64,000 nucleotides of DNA from Zygnema cylindricum. Taxonomy: Eukaryota; Streptophyta; Zygnematophyceae; Zygnematales; Zygnemataceae. Position 1 is the stretch's first letter. Each line of letters opens with the position of its first letter. This document shows positions 4,746-57,579 of this stretch, one piece after another. Where the stretch lies: the NCBI GenBank assembly GCA_037447655.1, contig JBBHKE010001946.1, forward strand, positions 59,565 through 123,564, given 5' to 3'. Made by a program: the position numbers and the translations under genes. The notes under the pieces were generated by a model that did not search any database, had not been told where the DNA came from, and saw only the letters and a list, made by a program, of their open reading frames with translations.

Positions 4746-4755
4746 NNNNNNNNNN
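4746..4755. other. Assembly gap (10 N)
   Basis: Ten consecutive Ns. A fixed round number suggests a scaffold join of unknown true size. Confidence 0.99.
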
Positions 4756-12027: not shown

Positions 12028-12479
12028 GATTTATAATGTGGTTGCCAAATGTTAGCTGACAATCCATTTGCTTTCGAGATATTTGGGACATTAGATTCTT
12101 CGTTTGGCAACTTCATCCGTGATTGCGCTTGACGGTCTTTCGAATTTAAGGGACCTAATAGCCCTTCCCCAACTCTCATGTCAACTTTTTGCTGCCAACG
12201 TATCTTTGTCGCCCTCCCTTCAACTATTTCAAGCATCGGCCCTCATCCGACAAAGCCCGGTGGTGAATGACGGTTGTGGAAGGACTGATTTACTACCTCC
12301 GCGCCACCCGTTGCACATTGATGATATTTGTCGTTCAGACCTTTACTGTGGACTTGTTTTAGCTTTGGGGCCGACGACCCGTTTTGTCCTTTAGAGTTTG
12401 TGTATAGCGTGGTTGTTAGTGTCGTTGTAGTTTGTTTTTGGTATTTGTATTTTTTTTTTCTTTCAATGTTCTGCTCATA
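12028..12479. other. No gene recognised
   Basis: This 450-bp stretch has short overlapping frames on both strands and no motif. Its right border is the start of the 12480 repeat copy and may be an assembly junction (see findings). Confidence 0.4.
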
Positions 12480-13204
12480 GGGTGAATTTCCATTAGACGA
12501 AAAGTGAGGTTGTTTACACAAATTCGGACATCTCTGTACTACGACGTACATCTTATTTTGTTTTTATCCGGAAAACAACATTAAAGAGAATCTTGCCAAT
12601 ATTCTCCAAGTTTGGGAGTTAACAATGGCTGTTGGATGGTTTTTTGTGAAGCATTCGCTTCAAATTTTATGTAATTGGTGATGTACCTCGCGAGGTATAT
12701 CACCAATCACAGAAAAGTTTGAGCCGCGACATGTTGGATAATGAGCATACGTGTCAATATGTCAACCAAAGGAAATCAAAAAAATTCGCACATGATATAC
12801 ACATTCAAAAATCCAACAGAAAATACAAACGAAATATCGTAACGCACTTTTGTCACGCTATTTTTGTAAACGCCCATTCGTCACACTATTTTTGGCAGCG
12901 CTCATTCGTCACGCGTAAAAACAGGAACCCTAAAAAAATGAGGTCGTAATTGACAAGTCGTCTTCAAAGAGTACAAAAGTTGTGTTGCACGATGACCTGG
13001 TAGGCACATGCATGGTACGCAAATGAAGATTTTTGGTCGGTGTGAAAATCATTGACGATTTGCAATATCCAATCCATAGTTACGTGGCACCACTATTTTG
13101 CTAACACGTGCATTACAGAATATGCGCAATGGAACTTCATTCAAATTGTCCCATTCTGTAATGTTGGCCGTACAATTACAGAATATCCTAATGGAACTTT
13201 ACCC
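12480..13204 (+). mobile_element. PIF/Harbinger-like non-autonomous element
   Basis: The ends are GGGTGAATTTCCATTAG on the left and CTAATGGAACTTTACCC on the right, forming a degenerate inverted repeat. The right flank is TAA (13205-13207) but the left flank is ATA, so the duplication does not match in place. The TAA before the identical partial copy at 4404 would match. The body is AT-rich with CGTCAC repeats and a central hairpin, and has no transposase. Confidence 0.72.
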
Positions 13205-13336: not shown

Positions 13337-14268
13337 GGGTACGCTCCCATGTAAGCGATGCTTTGAAAAATTATTTTGGACTGTATTGAAGTGTTTCGTA
13401 CTACTTTGAAAAGCGTCCCTATGTGCGAAAATGAAATCGGAACTTTGAAATGTGATGGTTGTAGACGTAGGTACAACTTGTGACGGATGAAGACGACTAC
13501 GAAACTTCCGCCAATTGGTGACGCCAACAAAAACAGCGACGGTTGTAGACGTTTGGTTTTTTGTAATTTTGTGACATGGCAGTTTAGGGTTTTGTGACAT
13601 TGTGACGCCATGCTCACTTGTGACAACGTCGACGTCACAAAATTCAAGAACTTTTTGCCATGGCTATCTGATGTCGTTTTCCCGACTTTTCTCACTCGAC
13701 TTGCCATAAAAATATACATAAAGGTAGTCAAAATAATTATTTTTAAAATATCTTTCATTTAATACCAGTATTGTCGTGCCTCCTCCTGAAAAGTGAGAGA
13801 CAAAAGCGATAGTGTGAGAGAGAGAGGGGAGAGGCGACGACGGCGCAAAATTTTGCATAGGTCCCATGAATGAAAGTGGAGGCCCGAGACCCCTGTAGAT
13901 TTTTTTTCCTTACATACTCGTCTTTTCAGTACATGCACGTGACGGGCAGGAAAAAAATAGCGAGTGCTCTTCCCCGTCCTAAAATTTTCCCTCTCGTGTG
14001 GCGTGTGCGTAGACCGTTTTGCATTCGTTGTTTGGGCGGTACTTTCCCTGAAATCAGGTCGCAAGGTGATTTTTGATGAAGTTTTTTGACGGGCTGGATT
14101 CTCTTGCTTGGGGGTCGAAAAAAAGAAAACGCCAAAATTCGTTAACATGACGACAAACATGAAGTACATTCAAAGTATCGACTTGACGTTTGCTGTACTT
14201 TTAAAGAATTGATTTTTTTGTACGGCAAAAGTTTTTCTCGTACGAAACTGCGTTTTGGGGACGTACCC
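13337..14268 (-). mobile_element. PIF/Harbinger-like non-autonomous element
   Basis: Left end GGGTACGCTCCCATG with TTA before it (13334-13336); right end GGGGACGTACCC with TTA after it (14269-14271): a perfect 3-bp duplication. The 932-bp body matches 8838-9793 in inverse orientation. The minus-strand frames of 157 and 136 codons inside it correspond to plus frames in the other copy but are broken differently, so they are treated as non-coding. Confidence 0.82.
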
Positions 14269-16264: not shown

Positions 16265-16509
16265 ACTGTCGTGCATGACGGTACAACTGTGAATGGCACG
16301 CATCACATCCAGCTTGGGTCGCCGATTATCACTAGAAAATGAATGATCATTACATATGTACAGTATTCGTCACCACCACCGGAGTACGAAACATTTATAC
16401 AGCAAGAAATGATAAATGAGTCAGCCCGCAAAAGCAAAACATTACAAGCACATGGACTAAGCAAGAAAATAAATGACAAAGCAAGTTCAAGTAAGGATGG
16501 AATTCCTAT
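16265..16509 (-). repeat. Truncated LTR fragment of the methyltransferase-gypsy family
   Basis: It is clearly homologous to 17448-17690 (the U3 start of the adjacent LTR), including GGGTCGCCGATTATCACTAG and ACCACCACCGGAGTACGAAA, but is several percent diverged. It ends directly against the low-coordinate end of the LTR at 16511. It is a remnant of an older family member beside the present element. Confidence 0.7.
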
Positions 16510-16510
16510 T

Positions 16511-17690
16511 TGCGACAGTAGCCACTAGGCCTTGAAGTCTTTTAATATTCCCTACAAGAGTCGAACCAACAGACAAGAACCCTTCCTTAGCTGGACGAAA
16601 GAGCCGAGATAGCCGGTATTCCCACAAAGTCAGACAGGACTGGAGCTAGACTACAATGTAAGCGCTCTGACAGCAAGTAAACACCAAGTCCACAGACGCA
16701 ATTCAACAACCACAGCACGTAGAAGGCAATCTGGAGGGAAACCTTGCAGGCTTGCGCCGGTAGATTAGGTAAGGTCTTAGTACAAAGAGAAGGAGAACCT
16801 CAGAGACAATTACTAGCATGAAACTATGTGTCTGAAAAAGGAAAAACCCTAACTCAAAAACTAGCCTGGCACTAAATATTTAGGTGAAACCCTAACGATA
16901 GAGTTCAACAAATCGCGAGAATAATGCTTGCCAGAAAACGACAACCTTCCAATGTTGGATTCCCGTACTTAATTTGCAAAAGTTCCTTTATTGCCAAATG
17001 GCATTTATCCTATGCTTTCACTAATCCGTACGGCTACACTAATTCCTACATGTCTTTGAGCAGGCACGTTTCTATGTTCAAACGTTGCCAGTTTTTAGAG
17101 ACGACCGCTGCGTGGCCGCCTCAGAATGCCTTATATCTACACCTCGAGGATGAAAACCCTCCCTAAGCTAAGCAAAAATAATGTATGAAGCTCCATGGGT
17201 TCATGACTTGAAACACCTGTCAGGTTTAGAACCGTTTGAATTCCTAACATCTGATGCCGTACCGCGGTCGAATTCCATGCTGATTTTACATTGCGTTCCC
17301 GCGGTGCCGTACGGAAGTATAATCCGACCTTTGTCCTGTACGTAGCTCCAGTTGTACTCTCGGATATGAACCCGTCACGTCACGGAAACGTCAATTAGTA
17401 TACAAATAAATAATAATGCTCGCCGACGTCTTACGGCATGACAGTTGTCATGTATGACGGTACAATTGTGAATAACATGCATCACATCCAACTTGGGTCG
17501 CCGATTATCACTAGAAAATGAATGATCATTACATATTTACAGTATTCGCGACCACCACCGGAGTACGAAACATTTATACAACAAGAAATCATAAATGAGT
17601 ATGCCCACAAAAACAAAACATTATAAACACATGGACTAAGCAAGAAAAAAAATGACAAAGGAAGGTGAGACAACGAAAGATGGAATTTAC
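16511..17690 (-). repeat. 3' LTR of the methyltransferase-gypsy element
   Basis: The element reads on the minus strand, so this is its 3' LTR. The low end is well fixed: homology with the second copy (27073) begins at TGCGACAGTAG, giving a CA end on the coding strand. The high end is inferred: on the minus strand a purine-rich AAGGAGTTGGGGGG (about 17690-17703) looks like the polypurine tract, and the older LTR fragment at 16265-16509 stops at the corresponding GGAATTCCATC. It has the same length as the copy at 27073, with no indels. Confidence 0.65.
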
Positions 17691-18948
17691 CCCCCAACTC
17701 CTTAGCCTGCAGAGGTGGTGCGCGGGAGGTGGGAAGGACAGGCGGTAGGTCGCGACATCCGTGGCAAAACCACTGTCGAACCGGGATAGTGTGCAGAGGT
17801 GGAACCAAACACTACATATGGAATCCCAGATTGCAAAAGTCACAGAGGAGCATTGTTGTTTCTCCATCAGATCGCCGGCATAACTAACACTTAGTGGCCT
17901 CGGTAATCGGCATCCGCCACGGGTCCATGATGTGGGAAAGATCGAGAAGATAGCAGGGGGCACAATTTTTTGAATGCTCCCGCAAAGTTCGCGTGTCGGC
18001 CCCTTGTAGGATTAATAATCCATTTGAGTCAATTTTTGTTATCCTCAAAATGTGAGCTGAAACATCAGTGTCGAGTGTGTCAAAAGTTTGCCGTCGCAAA
18101 TAAACCTAACCCCCCACCAGAAAGGGTTTTTGTTGTGGCCGACAGCTGCCACTGCGAGTCGTTGCAAACCGTAAGGAGTCGTGATGTTGGGCAATCTACA
18201 AATTTTCAAAAGCCATGGGCATTTCTCTAGCGAAATGCAACGCTCGGTTGGTTAGTTCTTCCAAATATAGAGAATCAGACATAAGAAAGTAGAGGTAAGC
18301 TCGCAGCTTTCTGTACATTCCTACCTAGTAGTGGTTTCGACCAAACAACACATAATAGGGGTTGAAATTTGCCAGACTGGCCTGTACAGACATGTGATAA
18401 CCCATGAAAATATATCCCAATGATTCATCCCACACCGTAATCTCTTTTTCTAAGCAATGTTTACGCAAAGCACGCGTAAAGGTTTGTACAGCTCTCTCTA
18501 CCAAACCGCCTGCTTGAGGATGATCTCGACTCGTCCGCCGATGATCGATTAACGCCTCGTCTAGCATCTCTTGATATTCGCCGCGGAACTCGGTTCCTTG
18601 GTCGGTAAGTACTCTTGCGGGGGCTCCATATCGGAGGAGCACATGCTCTTTGAAAGCTGTAGTGGTGAGTTTGGCAGTTTTCTGCGAGAGGGCCACAACT
18701 TCCACCCATTTGCTGAAATTTTCGATCATAATCATAATGTATTACTTGCCCCTTCGAGAAATTGGAAAGGGACCTGCCAAGTCACACGACCATTTGTAGA
18801 AGAGCCCTTGAATAGGCAAGGGTTGAAGGATGGTTTGCCGGTTAGAAAACGGGGTTTGTAGCCGGTCACATGTGTTGCATTCTTGCAACACAACCACCAC
18901 ATCAGCATGCATGCCGGACCACCAATACCGTGCCTGTACCAAACTCAA
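17691..18948 (-). pseudogene. Gypsy integrase (methyltransferase-gypsy, downstream copy)
   Basis: On the minus strand a zinc-binding module (HTDLGH, then CNTCDRL) is followed by the catalytic core: CDLAGPFP (first Asp), VLTDQGTEFRG (second Asp) and GLVERAVQTF (Glu). All three catalytic residues are present. A stop separates CDLAGPFPISRRGK from the rest. The C-terminal tail (to about 17700) includes CHGCRDLPPVLP and runs into the purine tract, as gypsy pol usually does. Integrase inserts element cDNA into the genome. The region is almost identical to 28253-29510. Confidence 0.88.
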
Positions 18949-19842
18949 AGTCCGTTTGGTGCCATAGTGTCCAAGGTCAGTATGAATTTGGTTGATAAGT
19001 GATAGTCGTTCCGCCGCCGAGGGACATGCAAGTGACTTCCATCTCAGAGAAGACGAACAAGTGAGCCCCCTATCTAAAAGTAACTTTGGGCTCTCTTACG
19101 AACACGCTCCTCTTCTATGGGTAGGGTGCCCGCCCGGAAAGACTGAGTAGATAGAAAAAGAATTAAAGCACTGCCCCGCCATGGATCGTGTTCAGTTTTG
19201 TGGTTTGTAGGTGCTGCAAAATTGTAAATCAGATGTGCTCCAACTGATAAGGCGACAACTGATTCGTCATCAAAATCTTGTCGTACACCATTATTATTGG
19301 AGTGGGGCAAAGGGTTCTTGGAGAGACCGTCGGCATTCAAACTGAGAAGCTCTGGTCGATGGATTATTTCCATGTCATATTCTTGTAAAATAAGAGCCTA
19401 ACGTGCTAATTTGCCAGACAACTTATCATTGGTCATAAGCCAATGCAATGGTTGATGGACAGTAAGAAAGGTGAAAGGCTTGCCATAAAGATAGTGGCGG
19501 TAATGTACAATTCCCCAAACTGCGGCAAGGCACTCCCCCTCGTAACTACTGTAATACGACTACGCTTGATTGTTGCTTCGATTGGCTTAAGCCACTACAT
19601 ATTCGTCACCTGTAAGTTCATACTGAGTTACGATGGCCGCAATACTTGGCTTACCAACGTTTGTTAGTAGGCAAAATGGTAACTTATGATTTAGTGGACG
19701 AAGAATGGGAGCGGTGGACAATGCGTCCTTTAATCCCTGAAATGCCTCGATCTGGAGGGTCCCCACATGAACGGAATTGACTTATTCAAGAATTGATTTA
19801 GTGGGGATGCAAGTGTACTGAAACTAGGAACAAACCGTCGGT
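18949..19842 (-). pseudogene. Gypsy RNase H and linker (methyltransferase-gypsy)
   Basis: Minus-strand blocks in order: VPSFSTLASPLNQFLNK (connection), LQIEAFQGLKDAL, GECLAAVWGIVHYRHYLYGK, TVHQPLHWLMTNDKLSGKLA and IIHRPELLSLNADGLSKNP. These are the conserved Ty3/gypsy RNase H motifs. The usual TDHQPL is TVHQPL, a lost Asp, and stops and frame changes occur, for example TAG in place of the Trp after KLAR. It continues the reverse transcriptase, from which it is now separated by a solo LTR. Confidence 0.85.
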
Positions 19843-19847
19843 AATAA

Positions 19848-20951
19848 TAAAACTCTGAGACCTCCATAAGTCCTCAGAGTGGACAGCTTCTAAGAAGCCT
19901 CCAGGATAATCCTGACCCCTTTGTGTTTCATCAAAAATAACTGCCACCCTGGCAAGCAAAAACTCTGACCACCTGCACCCCTGTGAAGGCAAGACTCCCT
20001 TGAGTCGATAGCAAAAAGAATCTCTGAATTTGCTCCCCTGAGTAGTAAGTTATGGAGGGTGAGTCGATAGCAAAAAGAATCTCTGAATTTGCTCCCCTGA
20101 GCAGTAAGTTATGGAGGGTCAAAGTTGACCTTTTGTACAGAAGCTCCTCTGGGAGAGAGGATCCTATCTCCTAATTTTTCTAAGTCCTATCTCTCTCACA
20201 GACTCTATCTACTGATGTACGGAACCAATCAGATTTCTCCTCCGTACACAAATGTACAGTCGCCGGTGTACTTTATGTACGGAAATTGTACAACATGGCC
20301 TAAATGTCGACACATGTCATATCCAGATTCGGTGCTTTAATCTCCGGAGATACCACGATCCAATGTAATTTCGCCACGTGTCATCTGATGTGGCGATGCC
20401 CATAAACCGCCGAATTCTTCTTCTGAGATCTCGGCGCTATTTCTGGCCGTCCGATTAAATTCACATTTGATCGGAGCCGTAATAAATACATGCGCGGTAT
20501 TTGTTTCGCTTACGAAATCAATGCGCGGTATTGATTTCTTATCCGTACCGCAATTCGTACTTTTACACTACTGGTTCTATGTATCCCGTAAACAATTATA
20601 GTTAAATGATATATCCTACGTAATAATGTTTAAATAGTTATCAAACTATATAGTACGTAATACTACTTCTAGACTTAACGGCTAAGGTTACCGACTACTG
20701 GTAGCTTGCCGGTCGGCAGGTTCCAGGATCAAATCGCGTGGCCGCCGCATATATTTTTACTTAAAAAACCCCAAATATATATTTCCCGTAAACCTCAAGA
20801 TAGCCTAGGTAGCCATGGCTCTAGCTTCCTCTCCAATTTCTCAGTGACTGCGACAAGTTTGAGAGTTGGAGAGAGAAGTTAGAGGTAGTCTGCCTCGGCT
20901 TCTTTCTTATTTCTGACCTAGAAAATATTTTAAAAACCATTAATTTCTACA
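19848..20951 (-). repeat. Solo copia LTR inserted in the gypsy reverse transcriptase
   Basis: The coding-strand start TGTAGAAATT..TATTTTCTAGG resembles the copia-1 LTR (33703). The end reads ATGGAGGTCTCAGAGTTTTA, matching the copia-1 LTR end ATGGAGGACACAGAATTGCA. AATAA flanks it on both sides (19843-19847 and 20952-20956). Deleting the LTR and one AATAA rejoins the gypsy frame as ANYYRRFVPSF. It arose by LTR-LTR recombination of a full copia element. Confidence 0.92.
20002..20119. repeat. 59-bp tandem duplication inside the solo LTR
   Basis: GAGTCGATAGC...TATGGAGGGT occurs twice in a row (20002-20060 and 20061-20119) with one clear difference (GAGTAG versus GAGCAG). The corresponding sequence is single in the LTRs at 49230 and 53665. 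Confidence 0.9.
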
Positions 20952-20956
20952 AATAA

Positions 20957-21708
20957 TTGGCTAACCCCAGGAATGCACGCAGGCTAGTCAAATACGTTGG
21001 GGCCGGGAGTTTACTAATTGCTTCCACTTTGACTTCTAACGGAGTAATTCTCTCTGATGAAATAAAGTGCCCAAGAAAAGGTACACCTTCGGCCCCGAAA
21101 GTGCATTTGGCAGGATGACATTTGAGTCTTACCTTTTTTAATTCCTTCAATACCCACTCTATATGCACTGCATGTTCCTCTAAAGAGGCTCAAGCGATGA
21201 TTAGATCGTCGATATAGCAACGGGCAAACTTACATCCCCCCAAGACTGAGTCCATGACTTTGTGGAATAGCGCCGGTGCATTTTTCAGTCCAAAGGGCAT
21301 AACCGCCCATTCCCAACGTATATCACTACCCCAAAATGCAGTCTTGTGTCGATCTTTTTCCTCTATTTCGATTTGATTAAATCTCTGTCGCAGATCTAGG
21401 ATGCTGAAATATTTAGCTCCTCCAACATGATAAAAAATGTCCTCAGCCAACGGCATTGGATGTCGGTCCTGGATTGTACGAGAATTCAGTTCTCGATAGT
21501 CCCCACACATGCGACGTTCTGTAAAATTCCCCTCCGCGTCTTTCTTACGCGGTATGACGGTGGGCGCCGCAAAGGTGGAATCGGACCTATAAATCAGACA
21601 TGCCTCTTCTAACTTTGCGCATCCTTTGTCTACGGATTCCCATTCAGTTTCTGATAGATGATGCTTGGGCTTAAATATAGGTCTGTCATCTTCCAGGTCA
21701 ATGGACAT
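20957..21708 (-). pseudogene. Gypsy reverse transcriptase (methyltransferase-gypsy)
   Basis: The minus strand encodes PIFKPKHHLSETEWE, RRMCGDYRELN, ILDLRQRFNQI (catalytic Asp), TAFWGSDIRWEWAVMPFGLK, CYIDDLIIA (catalytic Asp pair), LGHFISSERITP and LRAFLGLANY, the full Ty3/gypsy series. A TGA follows LIIA, with the same frame continuing as ASLEEHAVH. The thumb end is cut by the solo LTR at 20951. It copies element RNA into cDNA in the particle. Confidence 0.93.
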
Positions 21709-22230
21709 TTTGTAAGTGGTGTGTCATCCTAAGTCTTTCATGGAGAAAGTAAATGTATCTACGTTTCAGTTTATGACTTCATCTAAAAGTTCGTGTTCCG
21801 GTTTTGTTAGTCCCATTCTGAATTTCCATGTCGGTTTTCGGGCGTGGTGATGGTCATGGCTTCCATGGCATGTGCAAATGCTAGCTGCTCATCAGCTATT
21901 AAAGAGTGTCCCAACTCATACTCAAGTGGGAGGTGATGCAAACAATTTACTGCGTGATGCCAACTTCTAGATGGAAATGCCGCTCTCCAGTGTGGTGATG
22001 CCCGTACCGGTACCTGAGATCTAGTGGCCGTGTATGCTGGGAGAGACCAACTCATGTGACTAGGTTTCAAAAATTCATAAATAATGTGATCTGTGTCAGA
22101 CTTAGCGGGGACAAGAAAAAGAGCGAGCTGAAAAGTTGTACCCCAAAGAGAAGGTGAGGATTTTGAAACTGTGTGTTTAAATGGTGTATGCCCCCCCCCA
22201 GCTGATTGAGATGGATGCTTTTGTGCGTAT
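21709..22230 (-). pseudogene. Spacer between methyltransferase and reverse transcriptase
   Basis: This minus-strand region is open for most of its length, in one frame with the end of the methyltransferase down to 21807. Just before the reverse transcriptase another frame gives FSMKDLGCHT, the usual lead-in of gypsy reverse transcriptase. The rest shows no recognisable domain. Confidence 0.6.
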
Positions 22231-23190
22231 CGACCGGCTTCGAACTCCATTCCAAAGACAAATGACAATGATTCTGGTTCCATGATACGACCAAGTAAGG
22301 TGCAGCGTTGCCTCTCGGTGAGTCCCGGAGCAGTAGTGGTGCCTGAGATGAAATGTAAAGGATGTTCTCGTTCTGCAGCAGTAGGTTCTTCTAAGCTGCC
22401 TGTATGGGTATTTTGAAGCATGCCAGGCCCGTTATGTGAACATGTGTGAGAGTTTGGATATGCGACTAGTGTAGGAAGTGCACGTAGTGGCTGATCAAGG
22501 ATGTAAAGACAAAATGTAGGAGGACAATCTGTCTGAACACATGTCTGGACCTTATGAAAGGGAAGAAGTGCACACTGAATGGAAAGGTTAGGTGGTCTGA
22601 CAACGAAGTTAGCTTCTCGGAGCCGGCACATGTCCACAAGGTTAGTCCACTTGGAACGAACCTCGTGGGCTACCGAGCCGTGGCGTGCGACATCTATGAT
22701 CACTAGCGGTCCAATTAAAGATTCAATGCGTTTGTAATCAAGAGAATCGTGGGTCGGGGGTCATTATAAGTTGCGACGTTTTCTAAGACGTATCTAAAAG
22801 GACGATTCAGTGTTTGAAAAAAATGGATAAGCCGCACTACCTCAAAGAACAGTTTAGTACGACTATCTGCAAGACCTTAGCCCTTCCCGGCCCTAAACAT
22901 ACCCTGACATTCCCATCCGGCGAAAAGGAGATCGATCGGTTCTAGTTCCGACAAATGATGATTTCCTATTAGGCAAATATTTGTTGATTGCATGTCGTGA
23001 AAGGCGGACTGAGGTAAAAGGTGTGGATATTGTTCATGGAAGATTTGACACTGATGCAGCTGAGCGCGCCTAGCCAAAGGCTAATATCTACCGATTAATA
23101 ATGTTTAATAAAAAGCCCGTTCCGCAGGCAAGAGAGAAGTGAAGTACCGATTCCTGCAAAAAGGTCTAAGATAACGAGACCATTCGGGTG
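22231..23190 (-). pseudogene. Cytosine-5 DNA methyltransferase domain within gypsy pol (degenerate)
   Basis: The minus strand encodes, in the order of the C5-methyltransferase fold: LDLFAGIGTSLL (motif I, cofactor binding; 23130-23180), QYPHLLPQSAFHDM, PIDLLFAGWECQG (motif IV with the catalytic Cys at about 22907-22909; the Pro usual in PCQ is Glu), LADSRTKLFFEVVRL, YVLENV (motif VI, 22775-22783), GSVAHEVRSKWTNL (motif VIII-like), LRALPTLVAYP, EPTAAERE and GTTTAPGLTERQRCTLLG (motif X region). About 310 codons is a normal length for the domain. Stops (after KHY and after AGKG) and at least two frameshifts, one in the C-run near 22752-22756, disable it. The enzyme would methylate cytosine C5 in DNA. 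It sits in the pol frame between protease and reverse transcriptase. The exact DNMT subfamily is not resolved. Confidence 0.9.
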
Positions 23191-23975
23191 AGGTTGTAAA
23201 TTGACCGGTTTCCAATTAATGGGCACGAACCCAGAAGGATCTATTGTAATATAGGGTGGATCTGGAATACTAGATAAGGGAATTGGTATAGTAAATTTGT
23301 ATAGTTGGTCGAAATTTGAAAGGTCAATGATAAATCCGGGTGTACTAAATAATTATGGTAATCCCGGGGGATCTAGTGAGATTTCGTCCGCTGTTAGAGA
23401 TTCAAGGATGTCTCCACCTATGCCAACTGTGACATAGGCTGGCAATATCAGCGCAAAATAGGCCGTAGTGGGCATGGGCTGCCGGGCCGAGATAAGGGGT
23501 TAGCAAATTTTACGTTCCGGGAAGTTGTTCGGTCTATACGAAAATGTTTGATCATGCATATCAACCCCCCCGCCCCACTCGGAAAATAACGTCTTGACCG
23601 ACCAAGCATTCATAGTCACTACACTTGGTGACCAACGCGTGAGCATATATTTCTGCAAAATCCGTCGCTGACTGACTGTGAAACTGAAAAGAGATTCGTT
23701 CTATCGTAATACTGAGGACTAGCTCTGTGGTACCCGCGGAAGTCAACAGACGTGTGGTAGTGGGTTGTAGCTTATCTGCTGTAAGACCTATTTTGATGGC
23801 AAACTCATAACCAAGGATAATTGGCTTTGTGCTTGTACCCATGAGAGGAAGTACCAGAGCAAACCCATTAAGTGTGAACACGCCCAATTTGTTATCTAAA
23901 AAACTGATGTGAGGAGTGAGGCTAGAACGCTCTTGAAGAGTAATAGCTTGAAGGGAGAGAGCATTACGATGGTTT
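23191..23975 (-). pseudogene. Gypsy protease region joined to the methyltransferase
   Basis: Minus-strand KPIILGYEFAIKIGL followed by ECLVGQDVIF has the layout of a Ty3/gypsy aspartic protease. The active-site Asp-Thr/Ser-Gly-Ala is not intact: the aligned residues read MGTST. A seven-C run at about 23565-23571 shifts the frame. Beyond it, one frame with two stops runs from VDMHDQTFSYRPNN through ITIDPSGFVPINWKPVN directly into methyltransferase motif I, showing a single fused polyprotein. Confidence 0.75.
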
Positions 23976-25882
23976 TGTCATGCTTGTAATGCAATTGCTG
24001 AAGGAGTGAGATCTACAGATTTTTCGTTGCTATCCAACTCGGGGAGCATGGTGGACAGGATTGACAAATGTTCTTTGGCCTTATAGGTGTCTTGTATGCT
24101 CCTCTCTAGGATTGTTAATGCTTCATTGGTGATGTTAGAGGCCGCTTGTGGAATAGGTGTGCGGGGTTCTTTAGCAAATGATAGTGGGATACGCGTGTTA
24201 ATGGATTTTGACTCGCGATTATGATCGGGAGTCCCTTTAAGCTGAGCAGCGCGCTGTTGAACAGTGGGCTCTCGAAGAGATCGCTCAGCAAAAGAGGGCA
24301 TATGGACCACAGTTCGAGCCATTCCAGTTAATTGCGGTTTGACCTGTGCAATAAGCGCGACAAATTGCTCCTTCATCATGGCTGCCACAGTAGCCTGCAT
24401 TTCGGCTTTTTCTTGGTCCCTGCTGCTGATTTTTGGAGGGCTGTCTTTCTCTACCCCTTTGGGTGGAGTGACCAATTTTGCCGAGCCAGGAGGTATACTG
24501 CCGTTTTTTATTTGATTTTGATAACTGAAATCACGATTTTTAATGTGGCATCGATGTACTTAATGACTTGTTTGATTACAATGAAAACACGTGGTGGTCT
24601 TATCCGGAAAACTGCGTGCGTCGTGATCAGTGTTACCACATCGAAAGCATATACGAACACCAGGGTTTGTTGGTAATGTTCCCATGGCTGGAGCCTTTGG
24701 AGGTCTCGGATTAGGCCATGGGTTGCGTGGATTAGGATTAGGATTCGGCTTGGCATTAGGAGAAGATTTAGGTCACTCGTGAGTGTCCCACCAGCTGGTC
24801 TGCATTTCATACCGTACGGCATATTCTGCAGCCTGCTCGAAAGTAAATTTGAGGCCATATGCCACAGTCAAATGGCTTTGAATGAAACGTCGAGATTGGG
24901 TGGGAAATTGCCCCACAAATTTCTGAACTACCTTTGCGTATGACATGAGATCTGGCTGTGCTACACGTTATGTTTCCATACGTGCTCGCAATGTCGGAGC
25001 GGTTTCGCCTGGGCGACGTTCGAAATTCATTAGTTCTTTAACCTGATCGAGATTCTGCATTCGGTACTCTTCTTGTAATAAACTGAAGACAAATGATACC
25101 AGGTCCCTTAGAGGAACCAGAATTGCACGGCGAGCTGGAATTGCTTCTCGAGCCGCAACGGCGAACTGATGAGGGACCTCAAGTATTTCAGGTGAAATTT
25201 CGTTACCTACAGAATCATAAACTGCGGGTACTGCAGCTTGGAAAAGAATTTATGGACTGTTTGTTATGGCTAAAGATTTAGAATATGCGGGTGCCGTTTT
25301 TGTCATAGCACAAATTGCCGCATATTTCTGTGTATATAGAGATAGGGCAGATCCTCTAAGATATCGCCCAAGTAACGAAAAAAAAACCCGTAAATCATAA
25401 CGGTCTTGTTACCGAAATGCGAGATCGCGCATCTCGATATCAAAAAGCATGCAAAAATGTGACAAGGACATAGTGTCATTTAGACCCGAAAAACAAAAGT
25501 GATTTCTACCTCCTCCGGTGTGTATGGACGAGGCCATATCCACAAAAAAAGAATCGGAGTTAGTGTGTATATTTCCGCCCAAAGGAAAAAACGAAGGCGG
25601 TAGATTTAGATCCCGGATATAAAGGGAGTCTATGTCCGAATCTTTCCCCCAGCTATGGGAATAGGACGAAAAGACAAATGATGTAGATCTATATATGGTG
25701 GTTGTACCTGATCTAGAGTCGGGTGAACGCGTTAGCTGAGACTGAGCTGTATGACCAGTATAACCTAGAAACTGGATAGGAGGTGAGCTGGCGGGAATCA
25801 AATCCTGGTCGGGTCTACGGTAAAGACTGGAGCTTCTAGTGGTACCAACTGGAAACGGTAAATTGTTCCAGTCTGTTGGCAT
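23976..25882 (-). pseudogene. Gag of the methyltransferase-gypsy element
   Basis: A 157-codon minus-strand frame starting at 25882 (MPTDWNNLPF) is the likely gag N-terminus. The middle (about 25400-24860) is frameshifted. Near 24650-24540 two zinc knuckles follow one another: CFRCGNTDHDARSF, with the last Cys replaced by Phe, and CFHCNQTSH, then a stop, then VHRC, which keeps all four ligands. A 165-codon Gln/Ala/Glu-rich frame (24475-23978) then leads through one TGA, in frame, into the protease. Gag would form the particle and bind RNA. Confidence 0.75.
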
Positions 25883-27072
25883 GTAAACAGACAGTCGTCG
25901 TATCCGGATGCAACTAGATTCCAGACCCTACTCAAGGTCAGTGTGCAAATGCCCACTGCCAGAACTAATAATCAAATCACACAAGAAGTCTTCAAATTCA
26001 CGCAAACAGACACCTACGCAAACAGGCACCCCCATAAACGATTTGATCTATTGTGTTACACCATAGATAGTCTAATCGTGAACACCCTTAACAAGGTTGT
26101 GAACAGCCAGATCTAAGCAATACCACAATAAGTCACTTCAAGCCACTCCAAGAAGAAACATGTCACCTATGCAAGGCCACTTGTGGCCAGACTTAATAAA
26201 ACAGGAAACTATTCAAGGCCCACAAGGCCAAATGTAGTAAAACAGGAAACTATCCAAGGCCCACAATGACAGATGTAATAAAACATGAAATTATCCAGGC
26301 CCAACAAGGCCAGATGTAATAGACAAGAAGTTGTTATCCAAGACCACTCATGGTCAGATCTAATGAAAATCCAACCACAATGCCTATGCGGAAAGGAAGG
26401 CACAGCCTTCGGTCGGATCTTAACCCCTCTAGGTTACCGCGCTTAACAACCTATCACGCGCCTGCAACCACAAGGACCTGACTACTCACCTGGAGCGATA
26501 TGTAAGGTCTCCTAGTGATGCTCCAACCTCCCTCCAATTCCGGATTGTCGAGAAAAGATCACAGCTCAAAATACCAACGTAGTTAGTAGCCTGTTAGGGC
26601 ACACGTATCACCACTATGCCACGCTCTGCCCGTCTATAAAGCAATGATAATTTTCGTGATAATTCGCGCAACCTAATGTATATATATATATATATATATT
26701 TAAATATTTGAGGGTTTTTTTTTTAAGTTTTATTATGTTATAAGTTTTTAAGTTTTCTAGGTGTTCTTAGTGAGTTAATGCGGTAGGAAGAAAGAAGAGA
26801 AAACGATACCAGAAAGTTCAACAATCTCAGATTCAAAAACTCAAAAACGAACTAGACAACAAATAAATTGAAGCAAAGCATAACAGAAATATTTGTTTTT
26901 TTTTTCTTTAATTACAACAAATTCAGAACAAACTAGAAAGGAAGAAAAGAATTGACACAAGGAATAAAGAAAATTAGAAAGATAACAAATTATATAAAGT
27001 AAAAATAAAGAAACCAATTGACAACAGGAATAAAGAAAATTAGAAATAAAACAAATTAAGTGCGAGAATATT
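25883..27072 (-). other. 5' leader of the methyltransferase-gypsy element
   Basis: About 1.2 kb separates the 5' LTR (from 27073) and the gag start. It holds a 41-bp tandem repeat (26190-26330), a TA run (about 26679-26699) and a directly repeated purine-rich unit around AAGAAAATTAGAAA (about 26949 and 27016). No tRNA-complementary primer site was recognised next to the LTR. The minus sequence there starts AATATTCTCGCAC. Confidence 0.6.
26190..26330. repeat. 41-bp tandem repeat in the gypsy leader
   Basis: TAATAAAACAGGAAACTATT, TAGTAAAACAGGAAACTATC and TAATAAAACATGAAATTATC start at 26194, 26235 and 26276. Each is followed by AGGCCCA-type sequence. That gives about three and a half imperfect units. 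Confidence 0.85.
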
Positions 27073-28252
27073 TGCGACAGTAGCAACTAGGCCTTGAAGT
27101 CTTTTAATATTCTCTACAGGAGTCCAACCAACAGACAAGAACCCTTCCTTAGCTGGACGAAAGAGCCGAGATAGCCGGTATTCCCACAAAGTCAGACAGG
27201 ACTGGAGCTAGACTACAATGTAAGCGCTCTGACAGCAAGTAAACACCAAGTCCACAGACGCAATTCAACAACCACAGCACGTAGAAGGCAATCTGGAGGG
27301 AAACCTTGCAGGCTTGCGCCGGTAGATTAGGTAAGGTCTTAGTACAAAGAGAAGGAGAACCTCAGAGACAATTACTAGCATGAAACTATGTGTCTGAAAA
27401 AGGAAAAACCCTAACTCAAAAACTAGCCTGGCACTAAATATTTAGGTGAAACCCTAACGATAGAGTTCGACAAATCGCGAGAATAATGCTTGCCAGAAAA
27501 CGACAACCTTCCAATGTTGGATTCCCGTACTTAATTTGCAAAAGTTCTTTTATTGCCAAATGGCATTTATCCTATGCTTTCACTAATCCGTACGGCTACA
27601 CTAATTCCTACATGTCTTTGATCAGGCACGTTTCTATGTTCAAACGTTGCCAGTTTGTAGAGACGACCGCTACGTGGCCGCCTCAGAATGCCTTATATCT
27701 ACACCTCGAGGATGAAAACCCTCCCTAAGCTAAGCAAAAATAATGCATGAACCTCCAAGGGTTCATGACTTCAAACACCTTTCAGGTTTGGAACCGTTTG
27801 AATTCCTGACATCTGATGCCGTACCGTGGTCTAGTTCCATGCTGATTTTACATTGCGATCCCGCGCTGCCGTACGGAAGTATAATCCGACCTTTGTCCCG
27901 TACGTATCTCCAGTTGTACTCTCGGATATGAAACTGTCACGTCACGGAAACTTCAAGTAGTATACAAATAAATAATAATGCTCGCCGACGTCTTACGGCA
28001 TGACAGTTGTCATGTATGACGGTACAATTGTGAATAACATGCATCACATCCAACTTGGGTCGCCGATTATCACTAGAAAATGAATGATCATTACATATTT
28101 ACAGTATTCGCGACCACCACCGGAGTACGAAACATTTATACAACAAGAAATCATAAATGAGTATGCCCACAAAAACAAAACATTATAAACACATGGACTA
28201 AGCAAGAAAAAAAATGACAAAGGAAGGTGAGACAACGAAAGATGGAATTTAC
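27073..28252 (-). repeat. 5' LTR of the methyltransferase-gypsy element
   Basis: It corresponds base for base, with no length change, to 16511-17690 (offset 10562). Divergence is patchy: few differences at 27073-27740, many at about 27742-27962, and none seen beyond. The high border has the same inferred uncertainty as the 3' LTR. The sequence upstream on the coding strand is another integrase copy, so this LTR is shared by two tandem units. Confidence 0.65.
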
Positions 28253-29944
28253 CCCCCAACTCCTTAGCCTGCAGAGGTGGTGCGCGGGAGGTGGGAAGGA
28301 CAGGCGGTAGGTCGCGACATCCGTGGCAAAACCACTGTCGAACCGGGATAGTGTGCAGAGGTGGAACCAAACACTACATATGGAATCCCAGATTGCAAAA
28401 GTCACAGAGGAGCATTGTTGTTTCTCCATCAGATCGCCGGCATAACTAACACTTAGTGGCCTCGGTAATCGGCATCCGCCACGGGTCCATGATGTGGGAA
28501 AGATCGAGAAGATAGCAGGGGGCACAATTTTTTGAATGCTCCCGCAAAGTTCGCGTGTCGGCCCCTTGTAGGATTAATAATCCATTTGAGTCAATTTTTG
28601 TTATCCTCAAAATGTGAGCTGAAACATCAGTGTCGAGTGTGTCAAAAGTTTGCCGTCGCAAATAAACCTAACCCCCCACCAGAAAGGGTTTTTGTTGTGG
28701 CCGACAGCTGCCACTGCGAGTCGTTGCAAACCGTAAGGAGTCGTGATGTTGGGCAATCTACAAATTTTCAAAAGCCATGGGCATTTCTCTAGCGAAATGC
28801 AACGCTCGGTTGGTTAGTTCTTCCAAAAATAGAGAATCAGACATAAGAAAGTAGAGGTAAGCTCGCAGCTTTCTGTACATTCCTACCTAGTAGTGGTTTC
28901 GACCAAACAACACATAATAGGGGTTGAAATTTGCCAGACTGGCCTGTACAGACATGTGATAACCCATGAAAATATATCCCAATGATTCATCCCACACCGT
29001 AATCTCTTTTTCTAAGCAATGTTTACGCAAAGCACGCGTAAAGGTTTGTACAGCTCTCTCTACCAAACCGCCTGCTTGAGGATGATCTCGACTCGTCCGC
29101 CGATGATCGATTAACGCCTCGTCTAGCATCTCTTGATATTCGCCGCGGAACTCGGTTCCTTGGTCGGTAAGTACTCTTGCGGGGGCTCCATATCGGAGGA
29201 GCACATGCTCTTTGAAAGCTGTAGTGGTGAGTTTGGCAGTTTTCTGCGAGAGGGCCACAACTTCCACCCATTTGCTGAAATTTTCGATCATAATCATAAT
29301 GTATTACTTGCCCCTTCGAGAAATTGGAAAGGGACCTGCCAAGTCACACGACCATTTGTAGAAGAGCCCTTGAATAGGCAAGGGTTGAAGGATGGTTTGC
29401 CGGTTAGAAAACGGGGTTTGTAGCCGGTCACATGTGTTGCATTCTTGCAACACAACCACCACATCAGCATGCATGCCGGACCACCAATACCGTGCCTGTA
29501 CCAAACTCAAAGTCCGTTTGGTGCCATAGTGTCCAAGGTCAGTATGAATTTGGTTGATAAGTGATAGTCGTTCCGCCGCCGAGGGACATGCAAGTGACTT
29601 CCATCTCAGAGAAGACGAACAAGTGAGCCCCCTATCTAAAAGTAACTTTGGGCTCTCTTACGAACACGCTCCTCTTCTATGGGTAGGGTGCCCGCCCGGA
29701 AAGACTGAGTAGATAGAAAAAGAATTAAAGCACTGCCCCGCCATGGATCGTGTTCAGTTTTGTGGTTTGTAGGTGCTGCAAAATTGTAAATCAGATGTGC
29801 TCCAACTGATAAGGCGACAACTGATTCGTCATCAAAATCTTGTCGTACACCATTATTATTGGAGTGGGGCAAAGGGTTCTTGGAGAGACCGTCGGCATTC
29901 AAACTGAGAAGCTCTGGTCGATGGATTATTTCCATGTCATATTC
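28253..29944 (-). pseudogene. Gypsy integrase and RNase H end, upstream tandem copy (truncated)
   Basis: It is near-identical to 17691-19382, with one clear difference (CCAAATATAG versus CCAAAAATAG near 28827). It carries the same zinc-binding module, the same Asp, Asp, Glu core and the same internal stop. It breaks off within the RNase H end block (MEIIHRPELLS) at 29944, where unrelated sequence begins. It is the 3' part of a second unit lying head to tail with the main element. Confidence 0.9.
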
Positions 29945-33702: not shown

Positions 33703-34749
33703 TGTTGAAATTTATAGATTTCTAGAGTATTTTCTAGGTTTAAATATGTTTTTATAAAAGGAAAAAGAAAAGGACGGACAGCCTGCCTCCACCTCCGCTC
33801 TCTAGCCCCCATACTTGTTGTAGTCACTGAAGGAAAGAGAGAGAGGTTGATCCATGGCTGCCTTAGTTCAGCAGACAGCTATTTTTAGTAGGTTACTAAA
33901 AATATACTTGACGGACCAGAGATTTGATCCCGGTACCTGCGGTTCGTCAAATCGACCGGTAGCGGTCAGCTTTATCCTAATAGACTAGGACCAATGCTAA
34001 GTGCTATGGTATGTGATAGATATATAATTAGTTCGAAAGGATAAAGTTCATTTAACTAAAACTGTTTACGGCGTACATATATACAGTTTTATAAAGTACG
34101 TCGTACGACGGTAATTCAAAACGGATACCACGCATTTTATTTCTACACCGGAACAAATATCGCGCAAGTATTTATTCCGGCCAAGATTACGTTTCGCATA
34201 TAATCCAACGGCGCACATCATCGCCGAAATCCCGGAGTGGTCACTTTGGCATTTAGTGACGTGGCATCACCTGGCGCCACGTGGGGAGACATCATTCGGT
34301 CGCGGGAATTCCGAGAAACGTACGGATGAGTGGAAAGTATACACGCGTCCACTTATGGCCTTGTCGTAAAGAGGCCGTACATAAAGTACATCGGCGGTAG
34401 TACTTTCTAGTACTATACAGTTTTGTGATTGGTTCGTACAGACAGTAGATAGGAGCTGTGAGAGGGAATTAGGAAAAACTAGGACTTAGGAAAATTTAGG
34501 TAGATAGTCCTCTCTCTCAGAGAGTTTGTATAAATTGGCATCTTTGCCACCCTATAACTTATCGCCTGGTTGGCCGTTTTCAGTGATTCTTTTTTTTACG
34601 GACTCAGGGGAGTCCAGGCTACACAGGGGTGCAGTCAAATTATCAGTTTGCCTTCTTGGGCAGCAGTGGTTGTGGCTTAAAGTGGGTTAGTTAAATACTA
34701 TCTAGAGGCTTCTTGTATTCTGTGGTCCAATGGAGGACACAGAATTGCA
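33703..34749 (+). repeat. copia-1 5' LTR
   Basis: TGTTGAAATT...GAATTGCA. A TATA-like TATAAATTGG lies near 34528. The gag ATG is at 34730-34732, inside the LTR, 20 bp before its end. A tRNA-like segment in antisense lies around 33917-33985. Confidence 0.95.
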
Positions 34750-35218
34750 CGTTATGGGCCCACCCTCTAGGGTGCCCACCTTCAATGGATCTGGGTTCAT
34801 CTATTGGGAAGCCATGATGATGGGAGCTTTGTGTGAAAAACGATACTGGGGTATCGTCAGTGGACAAGTGAAACATCCACCTTCAGGAACTCCACCAGGA
34901 TTTGGGGGAGTAAGGTTTCCTGCAACAACGGCTGCCTCGGCGGAGGAGGCAGATGATGGGGACAGCAGTGTGTCCGAAAAGGGGAAAGGGAAGGAGACAC
35001 CCCTTACTCCTATTGCCACAGTATCGGGAGCGGCAATCGTGAAGACCGTGGAGAACGATACTCAAATGTGGGAGGATGTAAACATGGCTGCCAAGAACTT
35101 CATTCTGAGGCACCTCACTCAAAGTTTGGCCACTCCTCATCTTCACATTTACAAGGCCGAGGAGTTGTGGGTGAGTTTGGTGGAAATTTATAGAGCTGGA
35201 ACTATTCAGGAGCTCTAG
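34730..35218 (+). pseudogene. copia-1 gag, N-terminal part
   Basis: 163 codons from the ATG in the LTR (MEDTELHVMGPPSRVPTFNG) to TAG at 35216-35218. FNGSGFIYWEAMMMG is the typical start of a copia gag capsid region. After the TAG the frame goes on with LAEQKLLSYTYKGGKMLDYC before another stop and a frame change. The start codon choice is supported because the same LTR-encoded start recurs in the sister families. Confidence 0.85.
34751..34764 (+). other. copia-1 primer-binding site (half initiator tRNA-Met)
   Basis: GTTATGGGCCCACC lies one base after the LTR end. It complements the anticodon arm of the plant initiator tRNA-Met (GGTGGGCCCATAAC), not a tRNA 3' end. Drosophila copia and yeast Ty5 use cleaved initiator tRNA in this way. 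It lies within the gag coding sequence (codons V-M-G-P). Confidence 0.82.
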
Positions 35219-35289
35219 TTGGCTGAGCAAAAGCTATTGAGTTACACTTACAAAGGAGGAAAGATGTTAGATTACTGTAATGATCTTTC

Positions 35290-37632
35290 TTGTTTGTATA
35301 CAAAATGGAAAGTGCCGGGTGGATAGGTACAATGAAAATGAAAGTTAACACCCTTATCATGAAATTACCAAATGAGTTCGAAAACTTAGTGTACCGAGTA
35401 CAGGGAATGCCTGATAGTTCATGGAAATGGAACACAGTAGTCAGGATGATACTTGTGCAGGAGAACACAATGGAGATTAGGAGAGGAGGAAAGAGCATTC
35501 AAGCTCTAGCAGTAGGAGGGGACCGATGGGGAAAGGACCCGAAGAAACCTTATAGAGGGGAAAGAGATCATTCAGGGGGACAAAGGCCCCCAAAGGGTCT
35601 TTGTCATTATTGCAAAAAGCCGGGGCACTTTATTGCAGATTGTGTCAAGCTATCAGAGCTGAGGCTCCAAGAGAACCGTGGAGGGGGTTCTTCCGGAGGG
35701 AAGAAAAAGGCACTTGTGGTTACAAAGGTGTCAGGAGAAACCGAGGATGAGTCCTCTGAGGAGGATGGGGAGCTTCTTCTTGACGAGAGTTTGGAGGAGA
35801 AGGAGATTCCTCGGAGGCAGAAGTGTGCCCTTGGAGCCATCCGGGAAGCTCCACAGGAAGGATGGATCATCGACTCAGGTGCATCCATGCATATGTGTCG
35901 TGATAAAGAACTCTTCACTAAGTTAAGAAAGATTCCTACTGTAGAGATAGAGTATGGGGATGGGAGAGTGGTTACTACAGATCTAGTGGGATCAGTAGAT
36001 CTGAAAGTCTTAGTGGAGGGTAAGACTTCTATACTTACATTCTCAGATGTACTTTACATTCCTCAGCTGAGTAAAAACCTTGTCTCTATATCTGTGCTAG
36101 ATGACAAAGAGTTTGATACCTTCACCAGAAAGGGAGTCTTTACAGCTAAGTATGGGGATGAAGTTTACTTCACAGCAGATAAGGGTAGCCAAGGAATGTT
36201 TAGGCTTAACTTGAGTAATGAAAAGAAGAATGCTTACTATGTTGGTGTTCCTAAGGTGATGATTTGGCATAAGCGGTTGGGGCATGTACATTTTGATAGG
36301 TTAAGGGAAATGAAAAAACTTGGGGTAGTAGATGGCATTGAGTTTGGGGATAATGAAATGATGGATGATTGTAGTGGTTGTGCTCAAGGTAAGGCTCACC
36401 GACTTCCCTTTCCCAAAGCCGCCACATATAGAGGTGAGAAAGTATTAGATTTAGTCCACAGAGATATTTGGGGGCCTGCAAAAGTACCTTCGGTTGGAGG
36501 AAAGAGGTTTATGATGACAATAACTGATGACTGGTCTAGATACTCTAGAGTCTACTTTCTGAAAACAAAGTCTGAAGCATCAACTTACTTCAAAGGATAT
36601 AAAGCTTGGAGTGAGAAGTTGCATGAAACCCCCATTAAAAGGATAAGGAGTGATAATGGGGGGGAATATACCTCTAACGAGTTTGAGGAATATTTGAGAG
36701 ATGAGGGAGTGCAGCACCAGAAAACTGTACCATATAACCCAGAACAAAATGGGGTAGCTGAGAGGTTGAATAGAACACTAGGAGATAGTGCATGTAGTAT
36801 GTTGGCAGACAAGAAAATAGGAAAGAGATTTTGGGCAGAGGCAATGAACTGTGCCAACTATATTAAAAATAGAGTCCTTACCTCAGCTGTAAAGGGAGTG
36901 ACACCTTATGAGAGATGGGTTGGAAGGAAACCAGATATCTCACACCTTAAAGTATTTGGTAGCCAAGTTTACAGTCTTGACACGGATAGGAAAAACTGGA
37001 AACTAGATGCTAAGGGAAAACCTGGATACTTTGTGGGATATGATGAGGATGTTAAGGGATATAGAGTCTATGACTTAGCAAAGAAAGATATCATTCTGGT
37101 CAAACACTTAGTTGTCATGGATGAAGGGAAGTCATTTGACCCCTTCAAATATACAAAGAAGATAAGGATCAGATTTGAGTCCGAAAGTGAGGAGAACTCA
37201 GTCGTTCCCGAAAAAGACATGAGTGAAACTGTGATTACAGATTCAGGGGAGATCGAAGATACACGAGACTCACCGGAAACCTCACATACTCCTATGGACT
37301 TCGAGGAGATGGAAGAAGCGGGACAAGATACGGTTTTTATGGACAGGGGAGCCGATGAGACAGTGAGAAGAAATCCAAGACTTCCATCCATTCCAGCTTC
37401 GGAGTTTGAGGGAGGAAGGAGGAGCAGCAAAAGGATACAGGAAAAACAAGCTGCCCATAAGGTAACTAAGCTATCTCACCCAGATGAGCCTCAGTCTTAC
37501 TTAGAGGCAGTGAATAGTCCAGAGAAAGAAAGATGGATTAGAGCCATAAATGATGAGATGGCTTCTATCATGGAAGCAAATACTTGGGAACTAGCGGATT
37601 GCCCTCCAGACAGAAAAACCTATTGGATGTAA
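35290..37632 (+). pseudogene. copia-1 gag C-terminus, protease and integrase
   Basis: A 780-codon open frame. It begins in the gag capsid (MKLPNEFENLV). The zinc knuckle CHYCKKPGHFIADC is at 35602-35643, the protease active site DSGAS at 35872-35886, the integrase zinc module HKRLGH...CSGCAQGK follows, and the catalytic core has D in DIWGP, D in SDNGGEY and E in VAERLNRTL (about 36760). The C-terminal TPYERWVGRKPDISHLKVFG and the linker follow. It ends prematurely because an extra A in AAAAA (about 37614-37618) shifts the frame inside DRKPIGCKW. Otherwise the domains look intact. Confidence 0.93.
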
Positions 37633-38290: not shown

Positions 38291-38307
38291 ACAGTTGTAC
38301 CACTCCC

Positions 38308-40139: not shown

Positions 40140-40144
40140 GTAAC

Positions 40145-57287: not shown

Positions 57288-57579
57288 TCACAATTTGGAT
57301 ATGTTATTTATATGATTTTTTTGCGATTTCTTCGAATGTAATGCTTGCAAAACCTTCCAACCGTTCTCAGGCTTCACACTCTCAAGGTGTTAGTTTCCCA
57401 ATTAATTTGAGGATTATGTTTTGTTAACCAGGGTTTTCCCAATATTAGCTCCTCACTACCCAAATTCATTATTTAACACACAACTTTCATTATATGACCT
57501 TATATATCAACTTCTATTGTGTCAGTTTGTAAATCTTATGTGGTTTTATTACCATTTGCCACCTAGATAAGCAAATATT

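What the first reader, a model, noticed from the sequence alone, without database searches (positions are those of the whole stretch)
22231..23560. A cytosine-5 DNA methyltransferase built into a Ty3/gypsy polyprotein
Seen: C5-methyltransferase motifs I, IV, VI, VIII-like and X occur in canonical order on the minus strand. One reading frame (with two stops) runs from the protease tail straight into motif I, and gypsy reverse transcriptase follows downstream. Known: retrotransposons with captured methyltransferases have been reported from charophytes and dinoflagellates, with the proposal that they methylate their own DNA. Inference: this is a decayed member of such a family, in the order gag, protease, methyltransferase, reverse transcriptase, RNase H, integrase.
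Basis: partly seen in the sequence, partly recalled or inferred. Interest (0 to 1): 0.95.

Follow-up and report, generated by a model that had tools for sequence, protein, structure and literature searches.

The report
Decayed gypsy retrotransposon carrying a DNA methyltransferase
This is a dead copy of a plant-type jumping gene that carries its own DNA-methylating enzyme and a chromatin-reading finger, and relatives with the same layout and open genes turn up in green algae, so the enzyme is a lasting part of the jumping gene and not a chance insertion.

Summary
Confirmed. On the minus strand, 22197-23238 encodes a broken C5-cytosine methyltransferase domain between protease and reverse transcriptase of a Ty3/gypsy element. 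Its pieces, searched in order with X at the breaks, match 20 proteins at E 3e-71 to 5e-24. With this makes 75 proteins, each with at least one gypsy domain. The window's order stands open in one ORF in P0036 and P0050 and, across one TAG, in contig L001. The enzyme is nearest DNMT3 by profile and fold. The kind is known: KnitGypsy-Dnmt3 of Klebsormidium (PMC5890265). This copy cannot work as it stands: about 24 stops, frame breaks, a 1.1-kb insertion. That living relatives methylate their own cDNA is inference (about 0.45). The host genome could not be searched.

The parts
27069..28250 (-). Upstream LTR-like direct repeat; outer edge approximate
   Evidence: Same sequence as 16507-17690: 27069-29944 and 16507-19382 align without gaps, 28 differences in 2876 bp.
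25538..27068 (-). Leader between the LTR-like repeat and gag; no primer-binding site identified
   Evidence: Sequence read by eye.
23978..25537 (-). gag, broken; remains of two CCHC knuckles near 24540-24650
   Evidence: P0001 residues 8-704 align to 25507-23573 in one frame, E 3e-62, 6 stops over gag plus protease. ATG at 25537 and the knuckles by eye; the piece 23978-24559 has no Pfam match.
23561..23977 (-). Retropepsin-type protease ORF
   Evidence: Same P0001 alignment. The piece alone has no Pfam match, but the matching part of P0001 hits PF13975.
23239..23560 (-). Protease tail and linker, two stops, in the frame of motif I
   Evidence: Frame translation.
22197..23238 (-). DNMT3-like C5-cytosine methyltransferase domain; 2 stops and 2 frame breaks
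   Evidence: tblastn with P0001, P0022, P0036, L001; groups with P0001/P0022 in the tree.
20953..21843 (-). Reverse transcriptase; 3 stops
   Evidence: P0022 64% identical over 297 residues, E 3e-116; RVT_1 3.6e-17 for 21190-21723.
19847..20952 (-). 1,106-bp insertion splitting the polymerase gene; TTATT on both sides
   Evidence: P0022 residue 535 ends at 20953 and resumes at 19846; flanks printed.
19017..19846 (-). RNase H and linker; stops and a frame break
   Evidence: P0022 43% in 19886-19017, E 8e-64.
17891..19074 (-). Integrase
   Evidence: P0022 52% over 454 columns (19074-17755), E 5e-150; rve 6.5e-10 for 18325-18741.
17755..17890 (-). PHD finger after the integrase, 2 stops
   Evidence: Aligned to the PHD of P0022; Pfam PHD 1.4e-11 in P0022 and 4.3e-10 in L001.
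16507..17690 (-). Downstream LTR-like repeat; inner edge approximate
   Evidence: 27 differences from the upstream repeat in 889 bp (16507-17395), 1 in the other 1,987 bp of the shared block.
28251..29944 (-). Part of a second, tandem copy (RNase H end, integrase, PHD), without methyltransferase
   Evidence: Self-comparison; tblastn.

Best explanation
It is a dead copy of a Ty3/gypsy retrotransposon with the order gag-protease-DNMT3-like methyltransferase-RT-RNase H-integrase-PHD finger, one of an old family of green-lineage elements. Proposed working of the intact element: the methyltransferase is made with gag and protease, cut free and carried in the particle. It puts 5-methylcytosine on the new cDNA so that the copy arrives marked as host-like DNA, while the PHD finger steers the integrase to chromatin lacking H3K4 methylation. 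Shown here: domain order, nearest class, conserved catalytic residues, common inheritance of methyltransferase and RT, open relatives. Inferred: packaging, cDNA as target, PHD ligand, benefit to the element. Identity about 0.97, this mechanism about 0.45; the figure below is for the whole.
For: 20 protein matches, best 3e-71. 75 of 75 family proteins carry a gypsy domain (73, P0038 and P0070 by Pfam label). Whole order in one ORF in P0036 and P0050. L001: ORF of 1162 aa as read, open at its start, with protease (Pfam only 20.5 bits, under the cut-off) and methyltransferase, one in-frame TAG, then RT-RNase H-integrase-PHD ORF of 1047 aa, in a contig whose ends overlap by 127 bp. DNMT3A/3B best by profile and by fold of an AlphaFold model of the P0001 domain, pLDDT 87.8. 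Catalytic Cys in 74 of 74 rows with a letter, motif VI Glu 74 of 74, both motif VIII Arg 75 of 75. Methyltransferase and RT distances correlate (r 0.82, 43 proteins, 0 of 1000 permutations as high). Paper: two distantly related DIRS-borne Dnmt3 domains methylate CG in yeast (PMC5890265, section read).
Against: The same paper found no activity for the Klebsormidium gypsy enzyme in yeast and calls that inconclusive. Glu in place of Pro before the catalytic Cys is untested. No nucleotide data for the relatives except L001, so no dN/dS. No expression data. No host-genome search. The PHD ligand rests on sequence likeness only.
Confidence: 0.7

Rival explanations
1. The enzyme's target is host chromatin near new insertions (or genome-wide), not the cDNA: it helps the element hide or limit itself after integration.
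For: The PHD finger is closest to those of CHD4 and KDM5 proteins, which would bring the complex to chromatin. DNMT3 enzymes act de novo on chromatin in hosts (recalled).
Against: In order B the enzyme lies between RNase H and integrase, in order A it can sit on the gag side of a stop (L001). Neither position singles out chromatin.
Confidence: 0.25
2. The domain has lost catalysis (Glu-Cys motif IV) and serves as a nucleic-acid binding or packaging module.
For: 62 of 74 relatives have Glu where DNMT3A has Pro. The Klebsormidium enzyme showed no activity in yeast.
Against: Catalytic Cys, motif VI Glu and both motif VIII Arg are kept in every row with a letter there. Glu and Pro swap at least 6 times on the tree, with Pro in L001.
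Confidence: 0.2
3. It methylates RNA (for example the element's genomic RNA), as DNMT2 enzymes do.
For: The authors of PMC5890265 raise RNA methylation for the LINE-borne enzymes (discussion read).
Against: Profile and fold are nearest DNMT3; DNMT2 scores far worse (E 2e-4 and weaker).
Confidence: 0.08
4. A methyltransferase gene or pseudogene fell into this one element by chance, or the junction is an assembly artefact.
For: The locus is in a repeat-rich window with a scaffold gap at 4746-4755.
Against: The same junctions exist in other records, in frame. The gap is far away.
Confidence: 0.01

Closest known systems
KnitGypsy-Dnmt3 of Klebsormidium nitens (de Mendoza 2018, PMC5890265)
   Same: LTR gypsy element of a streptophyte alga with Dnmt3-related, unrearranged domains in the Pol ORF (section read).
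   Different: Its sequence, domain order and motif IV are in figures and supplements that I could not see. The main text never mentions PHD. The legend gives the structure of its repeats as that of a DIRS element.
SymbioDIRS-Dnmt3 of dinoflagellates (same paper)
   Same: Dnmt3 domain in the Pol polyprotein beside RT; activity on CG shown in yeast.
   Different: Tyrosine-recombinase DIRS elements, reported as an independent capture; the window element has an rve-type integrase.
Chromoviruses (chromodomain gypsy)
   Same: Histone-reader domain after the integrase.
Host plant DNMT3 and DRM
   Same: Nearest catalytic class.
   Different: Plant DNMT3 carries DUF3444 and DRM is rearranged (PMC6453930, passages); this domain is in canonical order inside a polyprotein.

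Membership tests
Ty3/gypsy LTR retrotransposon | Order protease-RT-RNase H-integrase on one strand | tested here: met
   RVT_1 and rve.
Ty3/gypsy LTR retrotransposon | Flanking LTRs with primer-binding site | tested here: inconclusive
   Direct repeats of about 1.2 kb at 16507 and 27069; they sit in a tandem arrangement, edges uncertain, no primer site found by eye.
DNMT3 | Best profile and fold matches are DNMT3, motifs in canonical order | tested here: met
   on relatives; on the window; only at E 1.7.
DNMT3 | Pro-Cys in motif IV | tested here: not met
   Window and 62 of 74 relatives have Glu-Cys, 12 of 74 Pro-Cys. Hence 'DNMT3-like', not filed as a DNMT3.
DNMT3 | Falls in the DNMT3 clade of a tree with DRM, DNMT1, CMT and host genes | not tested
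   The tree holds only the family and DNMT3A.
DRM | Motifs VI-X before I-V | tested here: not met
   Order I, IV, VI, VIII, X.
DNMT1/MET1 or CMT | Closest match to DNMT1/CMT | tested here: not met
   None so named among 57 solved sequences at E up to 1.
KnitGypsy-Dnmt3 | Sequence kinship with the Klebsormidium element | not testable with these tools
Chromovirus | Chromodomain after the integrase | tested here: not met
   PHD in its place in P0022 and L001 and by alignment in the window.
Self-methylating element | The enzyme methylates the element's DNA | not testable with these tools
   Needs an experiment.

The most novel reading that the evidence does not exclude
Green-lineage gypsy elements have kept, since before the split of the two domain orders, a two-part epigenetic kit: a DNMT3-like writer with a new Glu-Cys catalytic motif and a PHD reader behind the integrase. 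With it they write methylation on their own copies and choose chromatin that can keep it. The writer moved once, between the place after protease and the place after RNase H, and stayed functional in both.
Probability: 0.35. Interest if true: 0.85.

Novelty: new variant of a known kind. Interest (0 to 1): 0.62.

Why it matters
DNA methylation is a usual weapon against transposons, so elements that keep a methyltransferase of their own over deep time ask what they gain from it. In the sections I read of PMC5890265 the gypsy case rests on one alga, and the authors left the role open. Here the family spans records labelled Closterium, Mesostigma (label Mesvir1) and Haematococcus plus many unnamed ones, with open members, two domain positions and a paired PHD finger. 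That gives several natural enzymes, with Glu or Pro in motif IV, on which the self-methylation idea can be tested directly.

Tried and rejected
Pfam on single pieces was almost blind. A homology search with M5 alone, limited to proteins of similar length, found nothing among 1315 candidates. Three viral-contig scans with the methyltransferase alignment or relatives and one with the RT confirmed no relative. Phage records gave only distant matches (75 records, best 27.6% identity over 19% of P0001, E 5e-8), and the best viral fold match is weaker than the best PDB one (E 1.4e-16, TM by query 0.61, against 4.6e-20 and 0.70; the libraries differ), so nothing closer than DNMT3 was found among viruses. 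Reassigned stop codons as the reason for the stops: rejected, since stops fall on residues of many kinds and a neighbouring copia-type ORF is open for 782 codons. Rfam: no match in the window at gathering scores. Eight paper searches besides the one that first listed PMC5890265: no listed title or start of abstract reports methyltransferase gypsy elements in chlorophytes or with PHD fingers. Lists were capped (20 of 26 shown, 20 of 76) and full texts mostly not read; in PMC6338049 and PMC12477816 I saw passages only, the latter on a different DNA methyltransferase in a Sola DNA transposon.

Full report
What was checked. The finding places a cytosine-5 methyltransferase inside a Ty3/gypsy polyprotein at 22231-23560. 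The window is repeat-rich DNA with GC 40.7% and one 10-base gap at 4746-4755. On the minus strand the methyltransferase lies in three frames: motif I in 23098-23352, motifs IV and VI in 22718-23080 with one stop, motifs VIII and X in 21807-22760. Single pieces are nearly invisible to Pfam (only PF00145 at 0.026), and the best solved match of the IV-VI piece is DNMT3A, at E 1.7.

Is it real. Put in order with X at the breaks, the pieces match 20 proteins with E from 3.3e-71 to 5.3e-24; the tool scored only the 7994 candidates sharing most words. tblastn with the domains of 75 relatives hits this locus at 135 and 97 bits, against 28.1 bits for the best other place in the window and 29.3 for the best of 20 controls. 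No second methyltransferase shows in the window.

The element. P0001 aligns to gag and protease (25507-23573, 27% identity, E 3e-62). P0022 aligns to RT (21843-20953, 64%, E 3e-116), to RNase H (19886-19017, 43%, E 8e-64) and to integrase plus PHD finger (19074-17755, 52%, E 5e-150). The PHD finger, at 17755-17890 with two stops, was not in the finding. These alignments contain 24 stops: 6 in gag and protease, 2 in the methyltransferase, 3 in RT, 7 in the RNase H stretch, 6 in integrase and PHD. Three of the 7 lie at the ends of that stretch, where another frame also aligns, so 21 to 24. There are also frame breaks and a 1,106-bp insertion between 20953 and 19846 flanked by TTATT. One of the two arginines of motif VIII, present in 75 of 75 relatives, is also lost. 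The copy cannot work as it stands.

Repeats. 27069-29944 and 16507-19382 align without gaps over 2,876 bp, 10,562 bp apart. Of the 28 differences, 27 fall in 16523-17395 and one in the remaining 1,987 bp. I read this as LTRs (about 3% apart) of one element plus a recent unequal exchange that left a tandem second copy, cut off in RNase H; this is inference, and an assembly effect is not excluded. A 3% LTR divergence looks too small for so many stops (rough reckoning of mine: five or six expected). Either the LTRs were homogenised or the copy was already broken when it moved.

The family. A second search with P0001 returned 69 proteins, 14 of them seen before, for 75 in all. All 75 carry at least one gypsy domain, by my domain search (73) or by Pfam label (P0038 and P0070). 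14 have order A (methyltransferase before RT, or after protease with no RT before it), 59 order B (after RT or RNase H, or before integrase), 2 were not assigned. Labelled members of order A: Closterium (P0003, P0074) and P0020 (label Mesvir1, read as Mesostigma viride). Labelled members of order B: Haematococcus (P0009), with the unassigned Haematococcus P0070 beside it in the tree. P0036 and P0050 hold CCHC, protease, methyltransferase, RT, RNase H and integrase in one ORF. Both searches had length limits, so short stand-alone relatives would be missed.

An open copy at DNA level. The one confirmed match among 58 pattern matches in prokaryote genomes is L001, a 9,285-bp contig in a cyanobacterial bin, most likely a contaminant from a eukaryote. 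Its ends overlap by 127 bp, as an assembler gives for a repeated or circular sequence. It reads gag-protease-methyltransferase, one TAG, then RT-RNase H-integrase-PHD in the same frame (gag knuckles by eye, protease under the Pfam cut-off). The stop is followed by CAATCA, which fits the CARYYA read-through context (recalled, not from a call). So in L001 the methyltransferase would be made at gag levels. Its motif IV is Pro-Cys.

Which methyltransferase. A profile of 11 relatives matches 57 solved sequences at E up to 1: DNMT3A/B/C first (3e-21), plant DRM2 in one half (6e-10; 4onj, labelled only DNA methyltransferase and recalled as a DRM, 4e-12), HhaI (2e-8), DNMT2 weakly, none named DNMT1 or CMT. 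The AlphaFold model of the P0001 domain (338 residues, pLDDT 87.8, pTM 0.88) is closest to DNMT3B and DNMT3A (E 4.6e-20, TM by target 0.84; all 50 rows shown are DNMT3 entries). The canonical motif order excludes DRM. Motif IV reads Glu-Cys in 62 of 74 relatives and in the window, Pro-Cys in 12. A paper on fungal enzymes calls the PCQ triad conserved and its Cys invariant (PMC6709928, passages). None of the 12 papers listed by my one search with ECQ holds that term. Glu and Pro change at least 6 times on the tree, built without that column.

Trees. In the methyltransferase tree (77 rows) order A, with the window inside, parts from order B on one branch (100/83); the window groups with P0001 and P0022 (100/99). 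The RT tree (46 rows; 6 of order A, 38 of order B; short RT pieces left out) gives the same split (100/100) and puts the window with P0022 (100/98). Distances of the two domains go together (r 0.82 for 43 proteins, 0 of 1000 permutations as high; within order B 0.84 for 38). Long branches (P0020, P0058, P0061 and the outgroup) and the window's odd composition limit the finer placing. With one distant RT as root, order A looks older than B, but weakly (85/83). No tree with DRM, CMT, host genes or published retrotransposon enzymes was made, so one capture or two is not settled; the shared PHD finger and the shared GW before the motif favour one.

PHD finger. It is found by Pfam in P0022 and L001. 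A pattern finds it in 38 of 47 order-B and 1 of 2 order-A proteins long enough to show it; 7 of the 9 order-B misses bear the Pfam PHD label, P0005, P0065 and order-A P0050 do not. The nearest solved chains are CHD4, KDM5A, Lid and KDM5B, several of which read unmodified H3K4 (recalled). DNMT3 itself carries an ADD reader of the same mark (recalled), so the element may have rebuilt a DNMT3-like writer and reader pair.

Known and new. Gypsy elements with Dnmt3-related domains are reported from Klebsormidium, with purifying selection (Ka/Ks under 0.2) on the domain; two dinoflagellate DIRS domains methylate CG in yeast, the gypsy one was inconclusive (PMC5890265; results sections 6, 9, 10, the discussion, and passages). 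The kind is therefore known. What I did not find there or in my searches: the two domain orders, the PHD finger, the Glu-Cys motif, members in Haematococcus, Closterium and Mesostigma. Figures and supplements were not available, so some of this may be there. A 2025 paper speaks of LTR Copia and DIRS elements with DNMT3 members (PMC12344493, passages).

Limits. The host is unknown; kinship points to the green lineage, probably streptophyte (inference). The host assembly was never reached. No selection test was possible.

Noticed in passing
54766-58124 (minus): A second Ty3/gypsy element with knuckle, RT and integrase matches but no methyltransferase hit: an internal comparison for the finding.
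   Followed up: partly
33703-40139 (plus): Nearly intact Ty1/copia-type element: direct repeats of 1,047 bp, 99.3% alike, around a 782-aa ORF with gag-pre-integrase and integrase domains.
   Followed up: partly
40140-45537 (plus): A second copia-like element (by eye) with direct repeats about 93% alike.
   Followed up: no
4403-4745 and 12479-12821: 343 bp repeated at 100% identity, the first copy ending exactly at the 10-N gap (4746): may be a scaffolding artefact.
   Followed up: no
19847-20952: 1,106-bp insertion with a 60-bp tandem duplication inside and TTATT on both sides; possibly a solo LTR.
   Followed up: partly
16267-16504: Start of another LTR-like repeat directly abutting the end of the downstream LTR-like repeat (88-91% alike).
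   Followed up: partly
8886-9793 and 13337-14259: Inverted pair of about 0.9 kb, 88% alike.
   Followed up: no
L001 1-9285: What looks like a eukaryotic retrotransposon filed in a Synechococcales cyanobacterium bin (CADCWO010000201.1): probable contamination of a public genome.
   Followed up: yes
16507-17690 against 17755-25537: LTR-like repeats only 3% apart over 889 bp, yet 21 to 24 stops in the coding parts: ages do not agree.
   Followed up: partly
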